Positions 16,147-27,520 of a DNA stretch of 64,000 nucleotides are shown one piece after another. The notes under the pieces are model-generated. The model saw only the letters and a program-made list of their open reading frames with translations, ran no database searches and had not been told where the DNA came from. The translations under genes were made by a program, and so were the position numbers. How positions within the stretch are numbered: position 1 is the first letter of the stretch; the number at the start of each line of letters is the position of its first letter. Source of the DNA: Morganella morganii (GTDB taxonomy: Bacteria > Pseudomonadota > Gammaproteobacteria > Enterobacterales > Enterobacteriaceae); assembly GCF_003996855.1 (NCBI RefSeq), contig NZ_NRQY01000001.1:1945676-2009675 (forward strand), written 5' to 3'.

Positions 16147-16722
16147 TTAAATATTAACACCGTGCTGTAACGCTAATGCAGACAGACCACCGGCAAAGCC
16201 CTGGCCGACTGCTTTGAATTTCCACTCTGCTCCGTGACGGTATAACTCACCGAAGACCATCGCGGTTTCTGTTGATGCATCTTCAGACAGATCGAAGCGG
16301 GCAATTTCAGTGCCGTTATCATTATTACAGATACGGATGAAACTGTTGCTGACCATACCGAAGTTCTGTTTACGCCCTTCCGCATCATAAATTGTGACGG
16401 AGAAGACCAGTTTTTTCACATCCGCCGGAAGGGTGTTCAGGCTGATTTTCACCTGCTCATCATCACCGTCGCCTTCGCCGGTGCGGTTGTCGCCCTGGTG
16501 TTCCACCGCGCCGCACGGGCTGGTTTTGTTATTAAAGAAGATGAAATGGCTGTCGGATAATACTTTTCCGTCATCACCCACCATAAATACCGATGCGTCG
16601 AGGTCAAAATCCTGACCATCAGTCACACGTGCATCCCAGCCCAGGCCAACCATTGCCACGCTCATTGACGGGGCTTCTTTGGTCAGGGAGACGTTACTGC
16701 CTTTTGTAAGAGAAACTGCCAT
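16147..16722 (-). CDS. terE: TerD-domain protein TerE
   Basis: A 191-residue TerD-family protein. The N-terminal [13 protein letters not shown] motif is followed by GLGWDAR, the acidic calcium-binding segment [10 protein letters not shown] near residue 35, and [12 protein letters not shown] near residue 80; it ends with [22 protein letters not shown]. Known: TerD-domain proteins bind Ca2+ and act with TerB/TerC at the membrane in resistance to tellurite, phage and colicins. It is the last gene of the leftward operon, 63 bp after terD, its closest paralogue. No terF follows. Assignment as TerE rests on position and length. Confidence 0.92.
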
Positions 16723-16785
16723 TTTCGGACTCCTGCTGCGGATTATTAAAAAAGGGGCTGATTATCAGCCCGCTGAAAAAAATGA

Positions 16786-17364
16786 TCAGGATGCGTTAAT
16801 ACCGTACTGCGCACAGACCGATGACAGACCACCGGCATAGCCCTGCCCGACGGCACGGAATTTCCACTCGGTGCCGTGACGATAAAGCTCACCGAACAGC
16901 ATAGCGGTTTCAGTGGACGCATCTTCTGTCAGGTCATAACGGGCGATTTCCGTATTGGTGTCATCATTGACCAGACGGATAAACGCACCGGACACCTGGC
17001 CGAAGCTCTGGCGGCGGGTCTGCGCATCATGGATTGTGACCACGAAGACGATTTTGTCGATCTCTGCCGGAATCATGTCCAGTTTGATGATCAGAGATTC
17101 ATCATCACCATCACCCTGGCCGGTGCGGTTGTCGCCGGTATGGGTTACTGAACCGTCAGTCGAACGCAGATTGTTATAGAAAATAAAGTCTGCATCACCG
17201 CGCACTTTACCACCTGCTGTCAGCAGGAACGCGGAGGCATCAAGGTCAAAATCCTGACCATCTGTGGAACGAACATCCCAGCCTAAGCCGATCAGGACGT
17301 TTTTCATTGAAGGGGCTGTTTTGCTCAGCGACACATTACCACCTTTAGAAAGAGAAACGCTCAT
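16786..17364 (-). CDS. terD: TerD-domain protein TerD
   Basis: 192 residues with the full TerD fold: [14 protein letters not shown] at the N-terminus, [19 protein letters not shown] (residues 27-45) with its clustered calcium-ligand aspartates, [13 protein letters not shown] near residue 80, and the closing [22 protein letters not shown]. Very similar to the adjacent terE, so the two arose by tandem duplication. The gene lies between terC and terE in the standard order. Confidence 0.93.
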
Positions 17365-17406
17365 TTCACTTACTCCTTAGTTAAATCAGTGACGGTTGGC
17401 GGATAA

Positions 17407-18441
17407 TTATTTATCCGCACTTTCCGTTTTTTCCGGGAACATAAAGCTGGCGATAATACCCAGTGCCAGAACCCCGAGCACGACGAACAGGCTGCTGGTG
17501 GCTGAAATATGTAACCCGTGACCCCAGAGACTGTCTGTTGCATTCAGACCCAGTTTCACCGCGATAAAGAACAGCAGCGCGATAACCGCTTTTTCCAGAT
17601 GAACCAGATACTGCTTCAGAGCTTCCAGAACAAAGTACAGGGTACGCAGGCCGAGAATCGCAAACATCATGGCACTGTAAACAATCAGCGGCTCACGGCT
17701 GACGGCGATAATCGCCGGTACGGAGTCAAACGCGAACATCACATCGGACAGTTCCACTACCGCCACACACAGCATCAGCGGCGTGGCATACAGCGCGGCT
17801 TTTTTTCCGCGGCCGATAGTGACGTCTTTGTTCTCCGGTTTTGCCAGCTCGGCATCCACTTCTTTCTGGGTCAGCAGGAAGGCGTGTCCGCTCAGTTTCG
17901 GCCAGATAGGGAACAGTTTTTTCACCATCCGGTAAGCAATGTGCTGCGAGTAATCTTCTATCTCATCCTGCTCTTCGCGGTTACGCAGCATCATGACAGC
18001 GGTCCATGCGACGATCAGAGCAAAAATCACTTCCACATACGGCCCCAGGCTCAGCAGGCCGGTACCTATCGCCACGAAAATCCCGCGGAAAACGATAGCC
18101 CCGATAATCCCCCAGTACAGAACACGGTGGCGGAAACGATCCGGAACCGAGAACCAGGAGAAAATCGCCATCATCACAAACAGGTTGTCAACGGACAGCA
18201 CTTTCTCAAGCGCATAACCGGTGACGAACAGGCTCGCGACTTCCGAACCGTGGTGGATATAAAGAAACCCGGCAAAACCCATTGCCACAGCAACCCAGAA
18301 AACAGACCAGATTGCCGCATTTTTCAGTGAAACCGGCTTATCACCCCGGTGCATAAACAAATCAATAAAAATCGCACCGATAGCGAGGACGATGAAAACG
18401 GTGACTGTTTCCATCGGAAAACCGATATGTGTTGATTCCAT
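17407..18441 (-). CDS. terC: TerC integral membrane protein
   Basis: A 344-residue inner-membrane protein with about nine hydrophobic segments. Family hallmarks are visible: SVDNLFVMMAIFSWF near residue 85 and VVELSDVMFAFDSVPAIIAVS near residue 225, carrying the conserved membrane acidic residues, proposed to bind metal. In the ter system TerC is the membrane anchor that interacts with TerB. It is essential for tellurite resistance in plasmid systems. Intact, and in the normal position between terB and terD. Confidence 0.95.
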   Translation of the reverse strand: MESTHIGFPMETVTVFIVLAIGAIFIDLFMHRGDKPVSLKNAAIWSVFWVAVAMGFAGFLYIHHGSEVASLFVTGYALEKVLSVDNLFVMMAIFSWFSVPDRFRHRVLYWGIIGAIVFRGIFVAIGTGLLSLGPYVEVIFALIVAWTAVMMLRNREEQDEIEDYSQHIAYRMVKKLFPIWPKLSGHAFLLTQKEVDAELAKPENKDVTIGRGKKAALYATPLMLCVAVVELSDVMFAFDSVPAIIAVSREPLIVYSAMMFAILGLRTLYFVLEALKQYLVHLEKAVIALLFFIAVKLGLNATDSLWGHGLHISATSSLFVVLGVLALGIIASFMFPEKTESADK

Positions 18442-18463
18442 AATTAACCCTTAGGTATAAAAA

Positions 18464-18919
18464 TCAGAGACCAAATTCTGCCGGGTCAAACCCCAGGGCA
18501 GCAGCGATCTCTTTTACTGCTTTCTGCTCATCCTGATCGAAGTTACCGTCACTCTTCGCGACTGCAATCCCGACACGCACCGCTAACTGCGCAGCTTCCG
18601 GCTGATCCTTCAGCGCCAGGATATATTTCATGGTTTCACCTTTGCCGATTTCCATGTCGAAATCGAAACTGGCAACCAGTTTATTGAAAAATTCTATAAC
18701 TTCTGCGGTTTCAAATACTTTCAGTTCTTCGGAGGATTTCAGAAAACCGATCATTTTCTGTTTTTCTTCCGCACTGACCCCGTCACTGGAAACCGCGATA
18801 CGGGCACAGACTGCGATTGTACCTTCCATAAACTTACGGTTTCTGAAACGACTGACCTGTTTTGTCAGCTCTTCACGGCCTGAATTAAACGCATTTTTGA
18901 CCCGGTTCAGTATACTCAT
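18464..18919 (-). CDS. terB: TerB tellurite-resistance protein
   Basis: A 151-residue helical cytosolic protein of the TerB fold. The sequence runs SILNRVKNAFNSGREELTKQ, then ICARIAVSSDG-type and AVAKSDGNFDQDEQKAVKEI segments, the two acidic helix pairs that bind metal in the family. The start at 18919 is preceded by TGAGGAT and gives the usual N-terminus; the longer open frame runs back into terA. It partners TerC at the membrane. It lies 19 bp downstream of the defective terA. Confidence 0.94.
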   Translation of the reverse strand: MSILNRVKNAFNSGREELTKQVSRFRNRKFMEGTIAVCARIAVSSDGVSAEEKQKMIGFLKSSEELKVFETAEVIEFFNKLVASFDFDMEIGKGETMKYILALKDQPEAAQLAVRVGIAVAKSDGNFDQDEQKAVKEIAAALGFDPAEFGL

Positions 18920-18938
18920 TGCTGTATCCTCACTTAAA

Positions 18939-19858
18939 TTATTTCGAGCCGGCTTTCCAGCGGAAACCCCACCCGAACGCTTCGTCCATATCGCTTTGAT
19001 TTTTGAAGAAACGGTTAAGACGCTCAACTTTGATCGCCCCGTTCTCATTGACCAGACGGGCAATCGCGCACATGGTGCGGCGGTAATCACCAAATGCATT
19101 ACCCAGTGCCTGGATCACAGATTTCTGTCCATTTTGTAATTCAACAAATGCGCCCAGATCCAGGTCGATACCTTTGTTACCGCCACCGAATACATTGCTG
19201 AGAAAACCACCGGAACTGCTGCCCTGCGCTTCCCGGTGCCAGTTCAGATTAATGCGGATTTCACCGAAGTTATCCCGCTTGCTCAGACTGATTGACGTCT
19301 TCTCTTTACTCAGCGATATCTTGCTTAAACTGATTTTGCTTTCTGCCGGTTTTGGTGCCGGTTCTGCCGCCACATCCACCCCGAAATGTTCCGCCAGCGG
19401 TTGCAGCCCGCCGTTGAAATCCTGAGCAACAAAGCGGAATTTCCACTCATTATTACGACGGTACAGTTCGCCGAGGATCAGTGCCGCTTCCTGACGACCC
19501 GCGGTATCCACATTGCCGCTGAGCAGTTTTTCCTGATCAGCATCAACCTGCACTTCCAGGCTGCGCAGTCCGGCAACGGTCTGTCCGCCGTCACAGGTGA
19601 CCACAAATGCGACTTTTTGCACATCCTGACGCAGACGGCTGACATCAACTGTAAATATGGTGTTGTTGCCGTTCTGCTGCCAGCTGATGGTGTTGTCATC
19701 ATTCTGCGGCTGGCCGTAAAAGACCATGTCCGGATCACCCTGCACTTTGCCGTCAGCATACAGGCGGAAGGCGGAAGCATCCGCCCCGCACCCGACAGCA
19801 CCGTAATCCGCAGTGTTTTCAGCGGAACGGGCGCATTCGCCCCCGGCGTCATATTCAT
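18939..19858 (-). pseudogene. terA: terA with a single-base frameshift and an in-frame internal deletion
   Basis: Seen: the start (MNMTPGANAPV) overlaps the terZ stop as TGATG. After about 25 codons the frame is lost near 19793: one extra G in the GGGG run would restore S-G-A-G-A-D-A-S-A-F-R-L-Y-A-D-G-K and the rest of TerA. Further on, near 19080, the chain passes from LGNAFGDYR directly to RTMCAIARLVNENGA. Complete TerA proteins (about 385 residues) have some 65-75 residues there, including the DDRTGD-type calcium segment; about 306 codons remain here. The first lesion could be a sequencing error in a homopolymer, but the second cannot be explained so. Downstream ter genes keep their ribosome sites and could still be expressed. 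Confidence 0.82.
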
Positions 19859-20445
19859 CAGCGAACCACCGTACTGACAATGTCAGAAGACATATCATCA
19901 ATGGTGCGGCCACGGCACGCGGCACCGTGTGCCGTAAAGTTCCACTCGCCGCCGCTGCGGCACAGAGAGGCAATCACGATACCGGTATGTGAGCCCTGCT
20001 CATTCAGCTGATAACGCACCAGCTCTTTGCCGCTCTGATCCAGCACACGGCAGAAGGCATTTTCCACATCGTTAAATGTCTGGCCGCGGAAGCTGTTCAC
20101 GGTAAAGGCCAGATATTCGGCATTCTGCGGCAGGCGGTTCAGATCCACCCGGATCACTTCATCATCGCCGTCACCTTCTCCGGTCAGGTTATCGCCTTCG
20201 TGAACCACCGATTTGCAGTCTGATTTCAGTTTGCGGAACCAGATGGTGTCGAGAATACGACCGTCTTTATCCAGCAGGATGCAGCTGGCATCAAGATCAA
20301 TTGAGTCGTTACCGCCGCCGAACAGTGAACCGAGAAAACCTTTCTTTTTCTGAACAGGATCCCACCCGAGGCCGAAATGCAGCTGATTTAAGGCGGCAGA
20401 TGCTTTGCTGAGAGATACCGTCTGATTCTTCGTCAGTGAAACCAT
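19858..20445 (-). CDS. terZ: TerD-domain protein TerZ
   Basis: A 195-residue TerD-family protein and first gene of the leftward ter operon. It starts VSLTKNQTVSLSKAS, has FGLGWDPV near residue 24, an insertion with a glycine cluster (GSLFGGGND) characteristic of TerZ, DSIDLDASCIL near residue 47, and [13 protein letters not shown] near residue 83. The 20445 start follows AAGGAATG; the longer frame to 20490 is not supported. Its stop overlaps the terA start, so the two are translationally coupled. Confidence 0.92.
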   Translation of the reverse strand: MVSLTKNQTVSLSKASAALNQLHFGLGWDPVQKKKGFLGSLFGGGNDSIDLDASCILLDKDGRILDTIWFRKLKSDCKSVVHEGDNLTGEGDGDDEVIRVDLNRLPQNAEYLAFTVNSFRGQTFNDVENAFCRVLDQSGKELVRYQLNEQGSHTGIVIASLCRSGGEWNFTAHGAACRGRTIDDMSSDIVSTVVR

Positions 20446-20740
20446 ATTTTCATTCCTTAAACGGGAGAGGAATCCCGGTGACAGGTGCATGTGATAATGA
20501 ATTTTAAAAAATCATATCATGACGGAGTTCTTTGGCAAGATATATTTCACATAAAAATTAATAATATAATAAAAACAAATAGTTAAACCAAAACAGGTAA
20601 CATATAAAACTATGAAAAATGTCAGGTTATGTCAGCTTATTTATAACCAAAACATAATCATAATATGATTGACATATTGATTAATCATAAATAAACTCCC
20701 CCCTAATCTATCGGATAAAACAGAACAGGAATAAACAATA
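20446..20740. promoter_or_regulatory. Divergent ter promoter region with palindromes
   Basis: An AT-rich 295-bp region between terZ and the rightward biosynthetic module. It contains AATCATA-A-TATGATT (20656-20670), a perfect odd palindrome, and TGATTAATCA (20678-20687), a perfect 10-bp palindrome 7 bp away. Further ATCAT motifs lie near 20510-20530. These are candidate operators for TerW, the ter regulator encoded at the end of the module. Binding is inferred. Confidence 0.5.
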
Positions 20741-21799
20741 ATGGCGCATGCAATCTGGCTGACGGAAGGGCTTTCTTCCCAGCGTGATCTGATCCGGAAT
20801 ATCAGGCTGTTCGCGCAGACATTACAGGTTGATCTCACGATCTTTGCCTCTCACCGGCAGCCCCGTCATGAGATCCTGTCAGAGGCGGATTTTTCGCTGA
20901 CTGAACCGGCTGACGATAATGCCCGGCTGGCGTTTATCCTGTCTGTTACCGAAAAATACGGTATTCAGGCAATCCATGCAGGACGGAATACCTCGTGGTT
21001 TGAAACTCACAGAGACACTATCACCGCATCCGGTGTCCGGCTGACAACCGGAGTCGTCTCTCTGTCCGGTTACGCCGCAGCGGATGATAAAGCCCGCTTT
21101 GCTGCTGAAATGGAATCACACGGCCTGCCGGTTGTGCCTTCCGTACAGATCACGTCCGCCGCACAACTGCGTGATTCACTGACTCACTCCCCGTTTCCGG
21201 GACTGCCGCTGTGTATCAAACCGGTACAGGGTATTTATGGCACCGGTTTCTGGCAGTTTGATGACAACGCATCACCGATGGCGATGTTCAGCCATCCTGA
21301 ACGGCGGATCACCACACCAGAGCAGTACCTGTCCGCATTCGGCAGTACCGGAAAATGTTCTCCGCAGGTGCTGATGCCCTGTCTGCCGGGCCCGGAGTAT
21401 TCCGTGGATATTCTGGCTGATCGCGGAGAAGTGCTGGCCGCTGTCGCGCGGCGGAAAGAGGGTTCCCTGCAATACCTGGAACATGATGGCGCCGCATTTG
21501 AGCTGGCCTGCGCCTGTGCGCGGGTGATGAATGCTGACGGGCTGGTGAATGTGCAGACCCGCCACGATCACCACGGGCAGCCGCTGCTGCTTGAAATAAA
21601 TATGCGGCCGTCCGGCGGCATCGGCTATACCGCACTGAGCGGCGTGAATCTGCCGGGTCTGTTTGCCCTGTATCAGCTTGGTCTGCTCAGTGCGGAACAG
21701 GTCAGAGAGTATGATCGCACCGCGTTTTGTCCGGCGGTTGTCCGTCCCCTGACCGAAGCCGTCAGCTACCCGTTTTCCCTGAATAATGCAATACACTGA
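20741..21799 (+). CDS. ATP-grasp ligase of the ter biosynthetic module
   Basis: 352 residues with an N-terminal pre-ATP-grasp segment (about 1-100), a central ATP-binding lobe with PLCIKPVQGIYGTGFW near residue 157, and the metal-binding end LLLEINMRPSGGIGY near residue 285. ATP-grasp enzymes join a carboxylate to an amine or thiol. Known: comparative genomics (Anantharaman, Iyer and Aravind) linked such genes to ter loci and proposed a pathway to a nucleoside-like metabolite; the product has not been identified to my knowledge. It is the first gene of the rightward operon and overlaps nothing upstream. Confidence 0.85.
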   Translation: MAHAIWLTEGLSSQRDLIRNIRLFAQTLQVDLTIFASHRQPRHEILSEADFSLTEPADDNARLAFILSVTEKYGIQAIHAGRNTSWFETHRDTITASGVRLTTGVVSLSGYAAADDKARFAAEMESHGLPVVPSVQITSAAQLRDSLTHSPFPGLPLCIKPVQGIYGTGFWQFDDNASPMAMFSHPERRITTPEQYLSAFGSTGKCSPQVLMPCLPGPEYSVDILADRGEVLAAVARRKEGSLQYLEHDGAAFELACACARVMNADGLVNVQTRHDHHGQPLLLEINMRPSGGIGYTALSGVNLPGLFALYQLGLLSAEQVREYDRTAFCPAVVRPLTEAVSYPFSLNNAIH

Positions 21800-21806
21800 G
21801 GTCACT

Positions 21807-22949
21807 ATGCCCGGTTTTTCCCGTCCCGGTCACCACCGGTTTACACTGACTACCGGCACGCTGGAAGTCCGCAGCGACGCCACCCCGGAAACGCTGGATA
21901 CCCTGTTTGGTATCGCGGAGCGGCGTAACCCGAAACGGGCATTTCTGTTTGTCAGCAAAGTGCTTGGCCGCCATATTCCGGCAGAGCCGGAAATCATGCG
22001 CGGCGTTTACCGCCGCCTCAGTGAACAGTTTCCGCAGGATCTGCCGCAGCCGCTGCTGGTTATCGGCATGGCAGAAACCGCTGTCGGGCTTGGAGCAGGG
22101 GTATACAGCGAAATCCGCCGTCAGTATCCTCAATCCCTGTATCTCTCTTCCACCCGCCATCCGGCTGACGGGGAACTGCTGTGTGAATTTAAAGAGAACC
22201 ACAGCCATGCCACGGATCATCTGCTCTATTTCCCTGGAGATCCTCAGCTGAAAACCCGGCTGAAACAGGCAAAAACCCTGGTACTGGCAGATGATGAAGC
22301 CACCACCGGCAATACCTTTACCAATCTGCTGACTGCATTATATGAAAGCGGACAATTACCTGATTTACAACAGGTTGTCACGGTAACGCTGACTGACTGG
22401 CGAGATAAACCCGCCACCGCTCAGCACGGATTACCGTTGCAGCATGTCTCTCTGATCAACGGAAACTGGCACTGGGAGGCCGATCCTGATGCCACCCTGC
22501 CGGAGATGCCGGATGTGAATGTCAGTTCAGCAGGCACAGTACCAATCCGCCGTCCGCAGACGCGTGTACGGCTGGGTCTGCATGAACCGCACACAAATTT
22601 CGGCTGCTCAGTAACAGCTGCACCGGGTGAGCGGATTCTGGTGCTGGGTTCCGGTGAATTTGTCTGGGAGCCGTTCCTGCTGGCCGAACGGCTGGCGGAC
22701 GCTGGGGCAGATGTGAAATTCAGCGCCCTGACCCGCTCGCCGATAGCCCCCGGCGGTGCCATTGAATCCGTTATTTCCTTCACAGATAACTACGGACTGG
22801 GGATCGCCAACTACCTCTACAATGTGGCACATCAGTCATTTGACCGCATTCTGCTGTGCACGGAAACCGATCCGGCTGCATTTGATCCGCAGTTATTGCA
22901 GGTATTGTCCGGATGTGCACCACTGACGGAGATTATTTATGACGACTAA
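21807..22949 (+). CDS. Phosphoribosyltransferase/TRSP-domain protein of the ter module
   Basis: 380 residues in two parts. The N-terminal half resembles orotate-type phosphoribosyltransferases, with a PRPP-loop-like segment LVLADDEATTGNTFTNLL near residue 154. The C-terminal part (from about residue 235) has the TRSP-type features GERILVLGSGEFVWEPF and DNYGLGIANYLYNV. The start at 21807 follows GAGGTCACT just after the ATP-grasp stop; a 7-codon longer start at 21786 would overlap that gene. It probably transfers or removes a ribose-phosphate on the module's unknown metabolite. Confidence 0.82.
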   Translation: MPGFSRPGHHRFTLTTGTLEVRSDATPETLDTLFGIAERRNPKRAFLFVSKVLGRHIPAEPEIMRGVYRRLSEQFPQDLPQPLLVIGMAETAVGLGAGVYSEIRRQYPQSLYLSSTRHPADGELLCEFKENHSHATDHLLYFPGDPQLKTRLKQAKTLVLADDEATTGNTFTNLLTALYESGQLPDLQQVVTVTLTDWRDKPATAQHGLPLQHVSLINGNWHWEADPDATLPEMPDVNVSSAGTVPIRRPQTRVRLGLHEPHTNFGCSVTAAPGERILVLGSGEFVWEPFLLAERLADAGADVKFSALTRSPIAPGGAIESVISFTDNYGLGIANYLYNVAHQSFDRILLCTETDPAAFDPQLLQVLSGCAPLTEIIYDD

Positions 22950-23724
22950 ACCGGTGATCCTGACCGATCTGGATGACACCCTGTTCCAGACAAAGCGAAA
23001 AATGACACAGGAGCAGGCTCTTACGCCATTCCGTGCCGGCGCGCTTGACCGCACATTGCAGCCGCGAAGTTTTATGACGGAAGAACAGGCCATGCTGACA
23101 GACTGGCTGCTGACACATACCGATCTCATTCCGGTCACAGCACGCGGAACCGAAGAACTCCGCCGCGTCACTATCCCGTTCCGCTCTTACGCCATCACCA
23201 CTCACGGTGCGGTGATTCTGCAACCGGACGGCTCGCCCGAGCCGGTCTGGCAGTCTCAGATGCTGGCCGCCCTCGCCCCTTACCGTGAGCGGCTGCTGTC
23301 ACTTCAGCAGTTTTGTACTGACCTGATGGCTGAGCGCGGTATTGATGCATGGGCGCGTATTAATTATGAGTACGATGATGTGCCGGTCTATCTGGTGATG
23401 AAACACACCGACAGCACCCGCACAGACGAATTGTATGCCGTTGCCGCAGAGATTGAACAACAGTTCCCGGCAGACGGATTTTACATCCACCGCAACAGTA
23501 ACAATATTGCCTGGCTGCCGGACCCGGTGGAAAAAGGCCGCGCAGTGGCCCGGCTGCTGACGTTATTGCGGGCAGAGCGCGGCACCTTTCCGGTTATCGG
23601 CCTCGGCGACAGTCTGAGCGATTACCGTTTTATGAAACACTGTACCTGGTTCGGTATGCCGTCCCGCAGTCAGTTTTCAGATGCTGTCGCCGCCCGGATT
23701 TTCAGTGAGGTATCCGATGTATAA
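22939..23724 (+). CDS. HAD-superfamily phosphatase of the ter module
   Basis: 261 residues. Motif I is ILTDLDDTLFQTK at residues 8-20, with Asp nucleophile and acid; motif II is VTARGTEEL near residue 55; the final acidic motif is GLGDSLSDYRFM near residue 220. The cap region is of the trehalose-phosphatase/sucrose-phosphatase type. It overlaps the end of the preceding phosphoribosyltransferase gene by 11 bp and the next gene by 8 bp, which shows tight translational coupling. Expected to dephosphorylate a pathway intermediate; substrate unknown. Confidence 0.83.
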   Translation: MTTKPVILTDLDDTLFQTKRKMTQEQALTPFRAGALDRTLQPRSFMTEEQAMLTDWLLTHTDLIPVTARGTEELRRVTIPFRSYAITTHGAVILQPDGSPEPVWQSQMLAALAPYRERLLSLQQFCTDLMAERGIDAWARINYEYDDVPVYLVMKHTDSTRTDELYAVAAEIEQQFPADGFYIHRNSNNIAWLPDPVEKGRAVARLLTLLRAERGTFPVIGLGDSLSDYRFMKHCTWFGMPSRSQFSDAVAARIFSEVSDV

Positions 23725-24796
23725 TTTCCCGCCGTTCTCAGGCAGTTATCTGCCGGATGATGTGCAGTTTCTGCTCCGGCCGGTCACCATTGATATGACA
23801 CCGGTTGAACTGAAAGAGCAGCTGATTCAGTCCGGACAGAAACACTATTCCGATATGCTCAGTCAGGAACCTGCCCCCACCGCCTGGCATCTTGATTTGT
23901 TTAACCGGGCACTGGAAAAAGGCGCGCCGCGTCTGGCGCGGGATGTGAGCTCTCTCGCCCGGACACTAAGTGATTATTTTGCGGATCAGCCGGTTGTGCT
24001 GGTCAGTCTGGTCCGTGCCGGTGTGCCGTTAGGTGTGATGCTGCATCAGGCACTGCGCGATACAGGCAAAATTTCACACCATTACGGCATCAGTATCATC
24101 CGTGATCGCGGCATTGATACGGCGGCACTCGAGTGGATCGAACACCATCACGGCACCGCCGGTATCGTGTTTGTGGACGGCTGGACAGGCAAAGGCGCTA
24201 TCACCGGTGAGCTGATCCGCTCCCTGAAAGACAGGCCCGGCTACCCCGTCGATCCGCGTCTGGTGGTGCTGGCCGATCCTGCCGGATGTGCCTGGCTTTC
24301 TGCGGCAGATAATGACTGGCTGATCCCCTCTGGGATTATGGGGGCGCCGGTTTCCGGGCTTATCTCCCGCTCTGTCTGGTCGGATACCGGTCCGCACGGC
24401 TGTGTTCATTGTGAGCACTTACAATCTTATGAGTGCAGCCGGACACTCACCGATACCGTTACCGCATTGCGCCGTCAGCATACGCAGGTTCCTGCGGCGG
24501 TATTTCCTGATCCGGAGACTAAAGCCGCACTGCGGGAAAAAAGCCGCGCGGTGATCTCCGCCCTGGCGGCACGCTGCGGTGTGAGCGACCTGAACAGAAT
24601 CAAACCCGGTATTGCCGAAGCCACCCGCGCCGTCCTGCGCCGGGTGCCGGATCACGTCTTTGTGCGTGACTGTACAGAGCCGGACGTGGAGTTACTGCTT
24701 TATCTCGCCCGTCAGAAAGGGATCACTATCACGGAAGCCGGCGACGCCCTCGGGCAGTACCGCGCCGTCACTATTATCAGGAAGGTATCACCATGA
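23717..24796 (+). CDS. Phosphoribosyltransferase with C-terminal PELOTA-like domain (StiP family)
   Basis: 359 residues. A type I phosphoribosyltransferase-like core with VLVSLVRAGVPLGVML near residue 95 and the loop IVFVDGWTGKGAITGEL near residue 150 is followed by a Cys/His-containing stretch (GCVHCEHLQSYECS, about residue 227) and a C-terminal domain (from about residue 260) of PELOTA RNA-binding type. Database entries often call this family cysteine protease StiP; the visible motifs support a PRPP-binding enzyme instead. The start at 23717 overlaps the HAD stop; the 24793-24796 ATGA couples it to the next gene. Confidence 0.8.
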   Translation: MYNFPPFSGSYLPDDVQFLLRPVTIDMTPVELKEQLIQSGQKHYSDMLSQEPAPTAWHLDLFNRALEKGAPRLARDVSSLARTLSDYFADQPVVLVSLVRAGVPLGVMLHQALRDTGKISHHYGISIIRDRGIDTAALEWIEHHHGTAGIVFVDGWTGKGAITGELIRSLKDRPGYPVDPRLVVLADPAGCAWLSAADNDWLIPSGIMGAPVSGLISRSVWSDTGPHGCVHCEHLQSYECSRTLTDTVTALRRQHTQVPAAVFPDPETKAALREKSRAVISALAARCGVSDLNRIKPGIAEATRAVLRRVPDHVFVRDCTEPDVELLLYLARQKGITITEAGDALGQYRAVTIIRKVSP

Positions 24797-25740
24797 CCCG
24801 ACGTCTCTCCCCGTGGAATTTAGGGGCTTCACTCTATATGCCCGCCACCCGTACTGATATCACAGATGCCATTATTAATAACAAAATCAGCGGATTGCGC
24901 TCGCTGATTATTTGTCTGGAAGATGCGGTCAGTGAAACGGATCTCCCGCAGGCACTGAATAATTTGCAGGTTATCCTGGCGGCACTGACGGCAGAAAAAC
25001 AGCGTGCCGGTAACCAGAACTGGCCGCTGGTGTTTATCCGTCCGCGTCACCCTGAAATGGGATTATGGCTGCGGGAGCACGGTGACCTCAGTGCCATCGA
25101 CGGGCTGGTACTGCCTAAATTCACACAGAAAACCCTGCCGGTCTGGTGGCAGGTGGTGCAGAATACCCCGCTGTGCATGATGCCGACCCTGGAAACAGAA
25201 GAGGTCTGTGATGTGGTACAGATGCGGGAACTGGCGCGGGTTCTCAAATCTCATCCCTGTCATGACCGGATCATCGCACTGCGTATCGGCGGTAATGACC
25301 TGATGAATGTGATTTCACTGCGCCGGCCGCGTCATCTCACTCTGTATGACGGCCCGATGGGCTATGTGATAAAAATGCTGGTTTCCGTTTTTGCTCCGCA
25401 CGATTTTGCCATGACCGCACCGGTCTGCGAGCATATTGATGATCACGACGTCATGACGCGCGAACTGGCACTGGATATTGCTCACGGGCTGGTTGGCAAA
25501 ACTGCAATTCACCCGAATCAGGTGGCGGTAATTGAGCAGGCACTGCGGGTCTCCGCTGATGAACACGCCGATGCGCTGCGGATACTGAATTCCACACAGG
25601 CGGTATTCAAATCACAGGGAGCCATGTGTGAACCGGCGACACACCGTCGCTGGGCATCGGCTATTCTGGCCCGCGCACGGGTATACGGGATTGCACAACG
25701 GAAAACAGACGGACAACCATTTAAAACACAAAACGGATAA
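24793..25740 (+). CDS. HpcH/HpaI-type aldolase, citrate-lyase-beta-like, of the ter module
   Basis: 315 residues with a TIM-barrel of the CitE/HpcH family. Visible landmarks are the N-terminal LYMPATRTDI, SLIICLEDAVSETD near residue 39 with the metal-binding acidic residues, VLPKFTQKTLPVWW near residue 105, LRIGGNDLMN near residue 165, and the closing GKTAIHPNQVAVIEQAL near residue 235. Such enzymes cleave or form C-C bonds of acyl compounds with Mg2+. It is the last gene of the tightly coupled five-gene run (start overlaps the previous stop by 4 bp). Its role in the ter metabolite pathway is proposed, not shown. Confidence 0.85.
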   Translation: MTRRLSPWNLGASLYMPATRTDITDAIINNKISGLRSLIICLEDAVSETDLPQALNNLQVILAALTAEKQRAGNQNWPLVFIRPRHPEMGLWLREHGDLSAIDGLVLPKFTQKTLPVWWQVVQNTPLCMMPTLETEEVCDVVQMRELARVLKSHPCHDRIIALRIGGNDLMNVISLRRPRHLTLYDGPMGYVIKMLVSVFAPHDFAMTAPVCEHIDDHDVMTRELALDIAHGLVGKTAIHPNQVAVIEQALRVSADEHADALRILNSTQAVFKSQGAMCEPATHRRWASAILARARVYGIAQRKTDGQPFKTQNG

Positions 25741-25903
25741 TATTGCAGACAAAAATATCATCAGACAACATATCCGGCACTATTATATCTGTGTGCCTTG
25801 ATATATTCTGACTTGCTGATTAAATAGTACTGTTATGCGGAATACGTATTCTCGGCATAACCGCAGCTTTGTCTCTTTGTTTTAATACAGGTGTCCCCAG
25901 ACT

Positions 25904-26386
25904 ATGCAACTAAGCACACGACAGGTTCGTTTATTCACCCTAGCAACCCTGCTCGGCTCCGGAAAACCGGTTCCGTCAGATGAAATCCTGGCGACACTCC
26001 GCTGCTCAGAGGCAACTCTGACCCGTACATTCAAAGAGTTACGTGATACCTGGTCAGCTGAAATACGCTACCGCAAAGCCTCACACACGTATGAAATGAC
26101 GGTTCCCGGCACACTGGATCGCAAAACACTGAAAAAGATCAATGAGGAACTGGAAAGTATTGAAAGTCCGAAATCCGTGTATTACAGCGGAAAGGTATCG
26201 CTGGACAAGGAAAAGAAAAAAGCCGTGTCATTGTCTCTGACCGGAACAACAGTCAGAAAAATTAATCATCTGTCACTTCTTTCCGGCAAAAACCGGAGTG
26301 ATGCAGTAGAGATGCTGGTTAATCTTCACATTGATGAGTTAATTGAATCGATAATCCGCCGCAATGAAAGCCAGCAGAAAAAATAA
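25904..26386 (+). CDS. terW: TerW, regulator of the ter locus
   Basis: 160 residues. Residues 1-70 form a winged helix-like DNA-binding region (QLSTRQVRLFTLATLLGS, then ATLRCSEATLTRTFKELRD); the C-terminal half is helical and strongly basic/acidic (SGKVSLDKEKKKAV and DAVEMLVNLHIDELIESI), suited to dimerisation. Known: TerW is the small DNA-binding regulator of plasmid and O157 ter operons. It stands 163 bp after the aldolase gene with its own upstream region, and is closed by a terminator. Confidence 0.87.
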   Translation: MQLSTRQVRLFTLATLLGSGKPVPSDEILATLRCSEATLTRTFKELRDTWSAEIRYRKASHTYEMTVPGTLDRKTLKKINEELESIESPKSVYYSGKVSLDKEKKKAVSLSLTGTTVRKINHLSLLSGKNRSDAVEMLVNLHIDELIESIIRRNESQQKK

Positions 26387-26393
26387 CTCATAA

Positions 26394-26430
26394 ATAAAAC
26401 CGCCCGGAAAAATACCGGGCGGTTTTATTA
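26394..26430. terminator. Bidirectional terminator between terW and fbaA
   Basis: A perfect 12-bp stem, AAAACCGCCCGG with CCGGGCGGTTTT, flanked by A/T runs on both sides, separates the convergent terW and fbaA genes. Confidence 0.9.
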
Positions 26431-26443
26431 TTCATGCAACAAA

Positions 26444-27520
26444 TTACAGAACGTTAATGCAGTTCAGTTCTTTGAATGCTTTTTCCAGACGTTCGATCAT
26501 AGACTGCTGACCGGCACGTAACCAGACACGCGGGTCATAGTATTTTTTGTTCGGCTTGTCTTCGCCTTCCGGGTTACCCAGCTGCCCCTGTAAATAACCT
26601 TCATTTTTCTGGTAGTAGTGCAGGATACCTTCCCAGGTCGCCCACTGAGTATCGGTGTCGATATTCATTTTGACCACACCGTAACCCACTGCTTCTTTGA
26701 TTTCTTCCGCAGTAGAGCCGGAACCGCCGTGGAATACGAAATCCAGGCTGTTGTGCGGCAGGTTATATTTCTCAGACACATAGTCCTGGGAATTACGCAG
26801 AATTTTCGGCGTTAACTGCACGTTACCCGGCTTGTAAACACCGTGCACGTTACCGAATGACGCCGCGATAGTGAAACGCGGGCTGATGGCATTCAGTTTT
26901 TCATAGGCATACGCCACATCTTCCGGCTGGGTGTACAGAGCAGAGTTATCGAGGTGGGAGTTATCCACGCCGTCTTCCTCACCACCGGTGCAGCCCAGTT
27001 CGATTTCCAGAGTCATACCGATTTTTGCCATACGGGCCAGGTACTTGCTGCAAATCTCAATGTTTTCTTCCAGTGACTCTTCTGACAGGTCGATCATGTG
27101 AGAAGAGAACAGAGGTTTGCCGGTCGCGGCAAAGTGTTTCTCACCGGCGTCCAGCAGGCCGTCTAACCACGGCAGTAATTTTTTCGCACAGTGGTCAGTA
27201 TGCAGGATCACCGGCACACCGTAATATTCTGCCATCTGATGCACATGATGCGCACCGGAAATTGCGCCCAGAACAGCGGACTGCTGACCTTCGCCTTTAA
27301 AACCTTTACCGGCGATAAATGCAGCACCGCCGTTAGAAAACTGAACAATAACAGGCGCACCGGCTTTAGCCGCCGATTCCAATACGGCGTTGATCGAGTC
27401 TGTCCCGACGCAGTTTACCGCTGGCAGTGCAAACTTATTCTCTTTGGCTACCGCAAAGATTTTCTGAACATCATCGCCAGTGACGACACCGGGTTTTACA
27501 AAATCAAAAACTTTAGACAT
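26444..27520 (-). CDS. fbaA: Class II fructose-bisphosphate aldolase
   Basis: Zinc-dependent cleavage of fructose-1,6-bisphosphate to dihydroxyacetone phosphate and glyceraldehyde-3-phosphate. 358 residues, the usual FbaA length. The zinc/catalytic segment VILHTDHCAKKLLPW is near residue 105. The class II signature acidic region GCTGGEEDGVDN lies near residue 176, and the phosphate-binding FHGGSGST near residue 264. It is the last gene of the epd-pgk-fbaA operon, 79 bp after pgk. Confidence 0.97.
   Translation of the reverse strand: MSKVFDFVKPGVVTGDDVQKIFAVAKENKFALPAVNCVGTDSINAVLESAAKAGAPVIVQFSNGGAAFIAGKGFKGEGQQSAVLGAISGAHHVHQMAEYYGVPVILHTDHCAKKLLPWLDGLLDAGEKHFAATGKPLFSSHMIDLSEESLEENIEICSKYLARMAKIGMTLEIELGCTGGEEDGVDNSHLDNSALYTQPEDVAYAYEKLNAISPRFTIAASFGNVHGVYKPGNVQLTPKILRNSQDYVSEKYNLPHNSLDFVFHGGSGSTAEEIKEAVGYGVVKMNIDTDTQWATWEGILHYYQKNEGYLQGQLGNPEGEDKPNKKYYDPRVWLRAGQQSMIERLEKAFKELNCINVL

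What the first reader, a model, noticed from the sequence alone, without database searches (positions are those of the whole stretch)
20741..25740. Five-gene ter-linked biosynthetic module with unknown product
ATP-grasp ligase, phosphoribosyltransferase/TRSP protein, HAD phosphatase, phosphoribosyltransferase-PELOTA protein and citrate-lyase-like aldolase are tightly coupled (gaps of 7 bp or overlaps) and divergent from terZABCDE. Comparative genomics predicted a nucleoside-like metabolite made by such sets, but as far as I know the product and its link to Ca2+-binding TerD proteins are not established. A phosphoribosyl-based small molecule acting in phage or metal stress is an attractive hypothesis.
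Basis: partly seen in the sequence, partly recalled or inferred. Interest (0 to 1): 0.7.

Follow-up and report, generated by a model that had tools for sequence, protein, structure and literature searches.

The report
Ter-linked phosphoribosyl biosynthesis operon, Morganella
Next to the tellurite-resistance genes of a Morganella-like bacterium sits a five-enzyme operon, already known in outline since 2012, that probably builds a ribose-based small molecule of unknown identity; the sequence suggests that it travels and is switched on together with the ter genes, and that a close relative of one of its enzymes has already been crystallised under another name.

Summary
In detail: five intact, tightly coupled genes (20741-25740) face terZABCDE, followed by a terW-like gene. 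They are the Ter biosynthetic module predicted in 2012, so the kind is known; I found no published product.

Added here:
(1) In E. coli (StiP match in 1013, long terC match in 1010 of 5426 genomes) and on plasmids (2568 and 2642 records) module and ter have nearly equal counts. In two genome samples all 16 module genomes carry TerD, but 26 of 42 TerD genomes lack the module.
(2) A perfect dyad abuts the module promoter, with a weaker copy at the terZ promoter. It is in 25 of 25 divergent ter/module gaps with TerW and 0 of 19 without (23 of the 25 were in the set where it was found): a probable TerW operator.
(3) "Cysteine protease StiP" models as a phosphoribosyltransferase fold, with no invariant cysteine.
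(4) The HAD belongs to the family of a crystallised "trehalose phosphatase", very probably the Pseudomonas aeruginosa extrachromosomal one; 0 of 16 module genomes have an OtsA-type synthase.

Best reading: PRPP-driven ribosylation, then dephosphorylation, with lyase and ATP-grasp tailoring, making a riboside used by the Ter machinery. Product and target are unshown.

The parts
20741..21799 (+). ATP-grasp ligase (ATPgrasp_Ter, PF15632)
   Evidence: K160, E285, N287, R289 invariant in 13 aligned sequences; profile reaches carbamoyl-phosphate synthase-type ATP-grasp chains in the PDB
21807..22949 (+). phosphoribosyltransferase PRTase_2 with C-terminal TRSP domain
22939..23724 (+). HAD phosphatase, family of the solved 'trehalose phosphatase' 6d3v/6cj0
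   Evidence: HAD motif residues invariant in 14 aligned sequences
23717..24796 (+). StiP/PRTase_1-type phosphoribosyltransferase fold with C-terminal PELOTA (L7Ae-like) domain
24793..25740 (+). citrate-lyase-like C-C bond lyase (PF15617)
   Evidence: E43, D44, R83, K109, E134, D169 invariant in 15 aligned sequences
25904..26386 (+). TerW-like regulator (N-terminal HTH and C-terminal ribbon-helix-helix matches, both below Pfam cut-off)
   Evidence: a gene at the corresponding place is named terW in E. coli O157:H7
20656..20670 (.). perfect dyad AATCATAATATGATT, probable TerW operator, running into the -35 of the module promoter
20669..20697 (+). sigma-70-like promoter of the module, TTGACA-17-TAAACT
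   Evidence: consensus match only
20510..20524 (.). weaker copy of the dyad (3 mismatches) over the terZ promoter
   Evidence: a copy with 2-3 mismatches lies in the terZ half of the gap in O157:H7 and a Klebsiella plasmid too
20511..20538 (-). sigma-70-like promoter of terZABCDE, TTGCCA-16-TATGAT with TG before the -10
   Evidence: consensus match only
16147..20490 (-). terZ, terA (frame broken), terB, terC, terD, terE

Best explanation
The five genes form one operon that makes a small ribose-containing molecule, and it is one regulon with terZABCDE. Shown here: gene content, order, conserved motifs, predicted folds, co-occurrence with ter, and a dyad at both divergent promoters that in the compared loci goes with TerW. 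Inferred: TerW binds the dyads and switches both halves together; PRTase_2-TRSP joins 5-phosphoribosyl from PRPP to an acceptor; StiP-PELOTA, a second PRTase fold with a different acid arrangement, makes or moves a second ribosyl linkage; the HAD removes the 5-phosphate; the lyase makes or breaks a C-C bond in the acceptor and the ATP-grasp enzyme adds a carboxylate or amino acid. The core is the two PRTases plus the HAD; lyase and ATP-grasp are tailoring steps that many relatives lack. The product acts together with the TerD/TerC proteins and is not needed for tellurite resistance as such.
For: Genome samples: StiP over cut-off in 7 of 150 (phylum) and 10 of 197 (order), and every one also has TerD (30 of 150 and 13 of 197 have TerD; hypergeometric 7e-6 and 1.5e-14 if genomes were independent); PRTase_2 over cut-off marks the same 7 of 150. 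E. coli: StiP DNA match in 1013 of 5426 genomes (375 of them over at least 80% of the gene), terC over at least 80% in 1010 (not checked to be the same genomes). Plasmids: 2568 StiP, 2642 TerC records of 72,556, and 2554 with a relative of the P. aeruginosa HAD chain (not checked to be the same records). Dyad: 25 of 25 divergent gaps with TerW, 0 of 19 without; two of the 25 (L061, L076) and the Klebsiella and O157:H7 loci were outside the set in which it was found; genomes G001 and G317 hold one exact copy each, at ter. Motifs and folds. Core: of 16 sampled module loci PRTase 16, StiP 16, HAD 15, lyase 8, ATP-grasp 5 (two are contigs of 5 and 10 kb). Jumbo phage ME3 carries PRTase, HAD and StiP with a TerD-type gene, as PMC7824862 had said (passages).
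Against: No product, substrate or binding assay exists in what I saw. 26 of 42 TerD genomes in the two samples lack StiP, so TerD works without it. The dyad pattern was taken from 26 gaps of which 24, the window's included, have TerW, so 25 of 25 is partly by construction; the TerW loci are also relatives. Four of the 19 TerW-less gaps (L068, L105, L106, L108) are Enterobacterales (L068; the others by title and recalled taxonomy). In the window alone the pattern with up to 3 mismatches is only mildly enriched (6 found, 2.0 expected). StiP lacks the vicinal acid pair of classical PRTases. The PELOTA domain could mean RNA as partner.
Confidence: 0.55

Rival explanations
1. RNA is the substrate: StiP-PELOTA uses its L7Ae-like domain to hold an RNA and its PRTase fold to exchange, remove or ribosylate a base, and the other enzymes make the group that is put in.
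Against: PRTase_2 and HAD partners are typical of small-molecule chemistry (inference); the L7Ae match is weak. Fusions to RNA enzymes were not searched for systematically; the long frames printed show none.
Confidence: 0.15
2. The module is a passenger: it is inherited with ter by co-transfer and does something unrelated to it.
For: terZ-F alone gives tellurite resistance (PMC8115787 passage); a terW-terZABCDE clone has the wild-type MIC (PMC11003894 passages).
Against: The association recurs, by record titles, in Enterobacterales, Pseudomonas, Burkholderia, sphingomonads, Desulfovibrio and a Crocinitomicaceae MAG, with different gene orders and orientations, and in a phage; both promoters of the window share a dyad.
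Confidence: 0.12
3. Sugar-phosphate detoxification or trehalose synthesis: the HAD really is a trehalose-6-phosphate phosphatase.
For: The solved chains 6d3v/6cj0 are named trehalose phosphatase; that chain is 69-81% identical to the 15 best module HADs listed (Pseudomonas, Burkholderia and kin). [quoted passage not shown] aeruginosa extrachromosomal enzyme and says such assays need trehalose-6-phosphate (passages).
Against: 0 of 16 module genomes hold a PF00982 trehalose-6-phosphate synthase, while the control rings in E. coli and others; the HAD lies between two PRTases, not beside otsA. E. coli itself has the synthase, and import of trehalose by a PTS could supply the substrate elsewhere; that was not tested.
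Confidence: 0.06
4. StiP is a cysteine protease, as RefSeq and the Pfam title now call it, and the module is partly proteolytic.
For: The names.
Against: No cysteine is invariant: C229 is C in 50 of 55 and 11 of 13 sequences. The model is a PRTase fold. An older Pfam name, PRTase_1, is printed for PF11202 in PMC13109261 (passage).
Confidence: 0.03

Closest known systems
Ter-associated biosynthetic gene set (Anantharaman, Iyer, Aravind 2012, Mol Biosyst 8:3142; not held, not read; known here through citing papers and Pfam titles)
   Same: Same families and neighbourhood with terZABCDE and terW; nucleoside-like product predicted there.
   Different: No departure that I could see without reading the paper. 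The TerW-linked dyad, the match of the HAD to the solved trehalose phosphatase and the cysteine test were made here; whether the 2012 paper holds any of them I cannot say.
ter loci of E. coli O157:H7 and a Klebsiella plasmid
   Same: Same five genes, order and divergence; dyad with 0 and 1 mismatch in the gap.
   Different: Both carry an additional DUF4236 gene between the lyase and terW (in the Klebsiella record a CopG-family protein) that the window lacks.
Pseudomonas aeruginosa extrachromosomal trehalose phosphatase (very probably PDB 6d3v; 6cj0 is a similar chain)
   Same: A 99.6% identical gene lies on a P. aeruginosa plasmid between PRTase and StiP, in one ter locus with TerB, TerC and TerD: it is the HAD of a ter module.
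   Different: The window's HAD is 37% identical; the passages seen describe the enzyme as a trehalose enzyme.
CriT-CrpP of the Haemophilus influenzae b capsule polymerase (PDB 8a0c, PMC10299916)
CitE/RipC/malyl-CoA lyase family
   Same: Sequence family and conserved acidic and basic residues.
   Different: Far below the cut-offs of the RipC and CitE equivalogs; substrate unknown.

Membership tests
Ter-associated biosynthetic module | PRTase_2-TRSP, HAD, StiP-PELOTA, C-C lyase and ATP-grasp in one transcription unit next to TerD-type genes | tested here: met
   (transcription unit inferred from spacing)
Ter-associated biosynthetic module | product is a nucleoside-like metabolite | not testable with these tools
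   prediction, seen in citing papers only
Type I phosphoribosyltransferase (ORF2) | PRPP motif with two vicinal acids and TG; PRTase fold | tested here: met
Classical type I phosphoribosyltransferase (ORF4, StiP) | PRTase fold | tested here: met
Classical type I phosphoribosyltransferase (ORF4, StiP) | two vicinal acids in the PRPP loop | tested here: not met
   one acid only: F-[VIL]-D-G-W-T-G-K-G in 55 of 55, F-[VI]-D-G-W-[TI]-[GA]-K-G in 13 of 13 more varied sequences
Cysteine protease (StiP label) | invariant catalytic cysteine | tested here: not met
   C229 in 50 of 55 and 11 of 13; the next column has 39 of 55
CriT-type PRPP O-ribosyltransferase (ORF4) | sequence or fold relation to CriT and a second acid from another loop | tested here: inconclusive
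   top fold match but nearly tied; no sequence match; second acid not mapped
Trehalose-6-phosphate phosphatase (ORF3) | homology to a solved enzyme of that name, and HAD motifs | tested here: met
Trehalose-6-phosphate phosphatase (ORF3) | an OtsA-type synthase in the same genome | tested here: not met
   0 of 16 module genomes; the window's own genome is not held, and module-bearing E. coli were not in this set though E. coli has the synthase
Known anti-phage defence system | match to a PADLOC model | tested here: inconclusive
   no match for the six proteins scanned; the library holds only described systems
TerW regulon | TerW binds the dyad | not testable with these tools
   co-occurrence 25/25 against 0/19 only

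The most novel reading that the evidence does not exclude
The Ter product is not a nucleobase nucleoside but a ribofuranoside of another acceptor, made by the logic of CriT and CrpP: a PRPP-dependent ribosyltransferase (StiP) that lacks the vicinal acid pair hands ribose-5-phosphate to a hydroxyl or amine, and the HAD, whose Pseudomonas relative is reported as a trehalose-6-phosphate phosphatase, removes the phosphate. TerD-type proteins then sense or carry this riboside, and TerW controls synthesis and sensing through one operator set.
Probability: 0.2. Interest if true: 0.8.

Novelty: new member of a known kind. Interest (0 to 1): 0.5.

Why it matters
ter loci are on thousands of plasmids (2642 records with a TerC relative) and are linked to gut fitness of Klebsiella (PMC8115787 passages), yet what their enzyme half makes has stayed open since the 2012 prediction, as far as the searches here show.

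Tried and rejected
Reading StiP as a protease (no invariant cysteine; PRTase fold). Searching viral contigs with StiP: 9 pattern matches, none confirmed. Rfam over 19800-26500: nothing at gathering. PF15632 as a marker of the module: useless, it rings in 143 of 150 genomes through other ATP-grasp proteins; PF15617 likewise, 70 of 150, with only four matches above 250 bits. Six PRTase_2 genomes and four StiP genomes with matches only below the curated cut-off were left out of the counts. One paper search on TerW and palindromes listed papers on other subjects (12 of 21,093 shown). Fold lists for both models are filled by the PRTase domain, so TRSP and PELOTA are barely tested by structure. The 2012 paper and the 2018 trehalose phosphatase paper are not held; what I say of them is from citing papers or recalled. 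That 6d3v is the P. aeruginosa enzyme is inferred: its only cysteines, 87 and 233 in the printed numbering, keep a constant offset of two to the Cys85 and Cys231 named in PMC6838324. Catalytic roles of conserved residues of lyase, ATP-grasp and HAD are recalled knowledge of those families.
Full report
WHAT IS THERE. The window is from a Morganella-like enterobacterium: ter proteins are 91-98% and module proteins 87-95% identical to genome G001, and StiP is 95% identical to Morganella morganii FAM24679. Five genes on the + strand, 20741-25740, are coupled by a 7 bp gap and overlaps of 11, 8 and 4 bp. Divergently, beyond a 250 bp gap of 24% GC (to the terZ start as listed), lie terZABCDE; downstream lies a TerW-like gene. 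Pfam names all five except that the HAD is just under its cut-off. The same five genes in the same order are in one E. coli O157:H7 and on one Klebsiella plasmid looked at.

ALREADY KNOWN. The set was described by comparative genomics in 2012 as a Ter-linked pathway for a nucleoside-like metabolite. That paper is not held; I rely on its title in reference lists, on Pfam titles and on passages in PMC8115787, PMC7824862 and PMC5512222. In the searches made (listings, and passages of those opened) I found no product.

HOW TIGHT IS THE LINK TO TER. In a phylum sample of 150 genomes StiP and PRTase_2 pass their cut-offs in the same 7, all among the 30 with TerD. In an order sample of 197, StiP passes in 10, all among the 13 with TerD. 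The chance of this is 7e-6 and 1.5e-14 if genomes were independent, which they are not. The reverse does not hold: 23 of 30 and 3 of 13 TerD genomes lack StiP. In E. coli, a StiP match is in 1013 of 5426 genomes (375 over at least 80% of the gene) and a terC match over at least 80% in 1010 (not checked to be the same genomes). On plasmids StiP is in 2568 and a TerC relative in 2642 records, with nearly equal counts for the commonest genera (not checked record by record). Against a need for tellurite resistance: terZ-F without the module makes MG1655 resistant (PMC8115787 passage), and a clone with terW and terZABCDE has the wild type's MIC, though the wild strain survives tellurite better than every clone (PMC11003894 passages).

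CORE AND TAILORING. Among 80 loci found with StiP in genome contigs (the best 80 of at least 594), HAD is in 80, PRTase in 79, lyase in 78, ATP-grasp in 58, a TerD-domain gene in 74; some loci are contig ends. Among the 16 sampled module loci PRTase and StiP are in 16, HAD in 15, lyase in 8, ATP-grasp in 5; two are contigs of 5 and 10 kb. Phage ME3 has PRTase, HAD and StiP with a TerD-type gene. So two PRTases and a HAD look like the core.

A PROBABLE COMMON OPERATOR. The gap holds AATCATAATATGATT at 20656-20670, ending in the -35 of a TTGACA-17-TAAACT promoter for the module; a copy with three mismatches sits on the terZ promoter. In the window as a whole this pattern with up to 3 mismatches is only mildly enriched (6 matches, 2.0 expected), so the case rests on comparison. 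The dyad was found in 21 of 26 gaps, 24 of them, the window's included, with TerW, so the next figure is partly by construction. Of 98 loci scanned, 44 have a divergent ter/module gap; the dyad with up to 2 mismatches is in 25 of 25 with TerW and 0 of 19 without. Four loci with TerW-type genes that were not used to find it have it too: L061 and L076, which are among the 25, and the Klebsiella and O157:H7 loci. Over 100 whole loci the figures are 25 of 25 and 2 of 75, those two not upstream of a module gene. G001 and G317 have one exact copy in the genome, at ter; G250, whose module locus has no TerW, has one elsewhere; G284 none. Relatedness is a confounder; four TerW-less gaps come from Enterobacterales and lack the dyad. 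TerW shows weak HTH and ribbon-helix-helix matches. That TerW regulates ter is reported in PMC12054061 with a 2011 reference (passage). I found no paper that names this dyad, but only one search was made for it and 12 rows seen.

A RELATIVE OF THE HAD HAS BEEN SOLVED UNDER ANOTHER NAME. The HAD profile finds PDB 6d3v and 6cj0, trehalose phosphatase, at E 2e-99. That chain is 69-81% identical to the 15 best of 97 module HADs (37% to the window's). Its only cysteines, 87 and 233, match with a constant offset of two the Cys85 and Cys231 given for the P. aeruginosa extrachromosomal enzyme in PMC6838324. A 99.6% identical gene lies on a P. aeruginosa plasmid between PRTase and StiP, in a ter locus. 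Yet 0 of 16 module genomes have an OtsA-type synthase, with the control positive in E. coli. Trehalose-6-phosphate is therefore probably a stand-in for the true substrate; E. coli does have the synthase, and import of trehalose by a PTS was not excluded.

VERDICT. Real, correctly described, known kind. What it makes is still open; the evidence favours a PRPP-derived riboside under TerW control, with CriT-like chemistry as the boldest reading.

Noticed in passing
window 18939-19973, minus strand (terA): terA of the window is broken relative to genome G001: its reading frame changes near the N-terminus and an internal stretch of 75 residues is missing. Sequencing error was not excluded.
   Followed up: partly
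window 25904-26386: The TerW-like protein seems to combine an N-terminal HTH with a C-terminal ribbon-helix-helix, both below Pfam cut-offs.
   Followed up: partly
L089-L142 (Proteus- and Pseudomonas-type loci) and L168:11787-12515: A second HAD-like phosphatase gene; its cluster has members in 23 of the 80 loci, and on the P. aeruginosa plasmid it follows the lyase and is annotated HAD-IB.
   Followed up: no
L166:12129-13352 and L167:11012-12220: A DUF4236 gene lies between lyase and terW in the Klebsiella plasmid and O157:H7 loci but not in the window.
   Followed up: no
L082 (MT836648.1, phage-labelled scaffold): PRTase, StiP, lyase and three TerD matches on a 15 kb unannotated scaffold from human faeces labelled Bacteriophage sp..
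   Followed up: no
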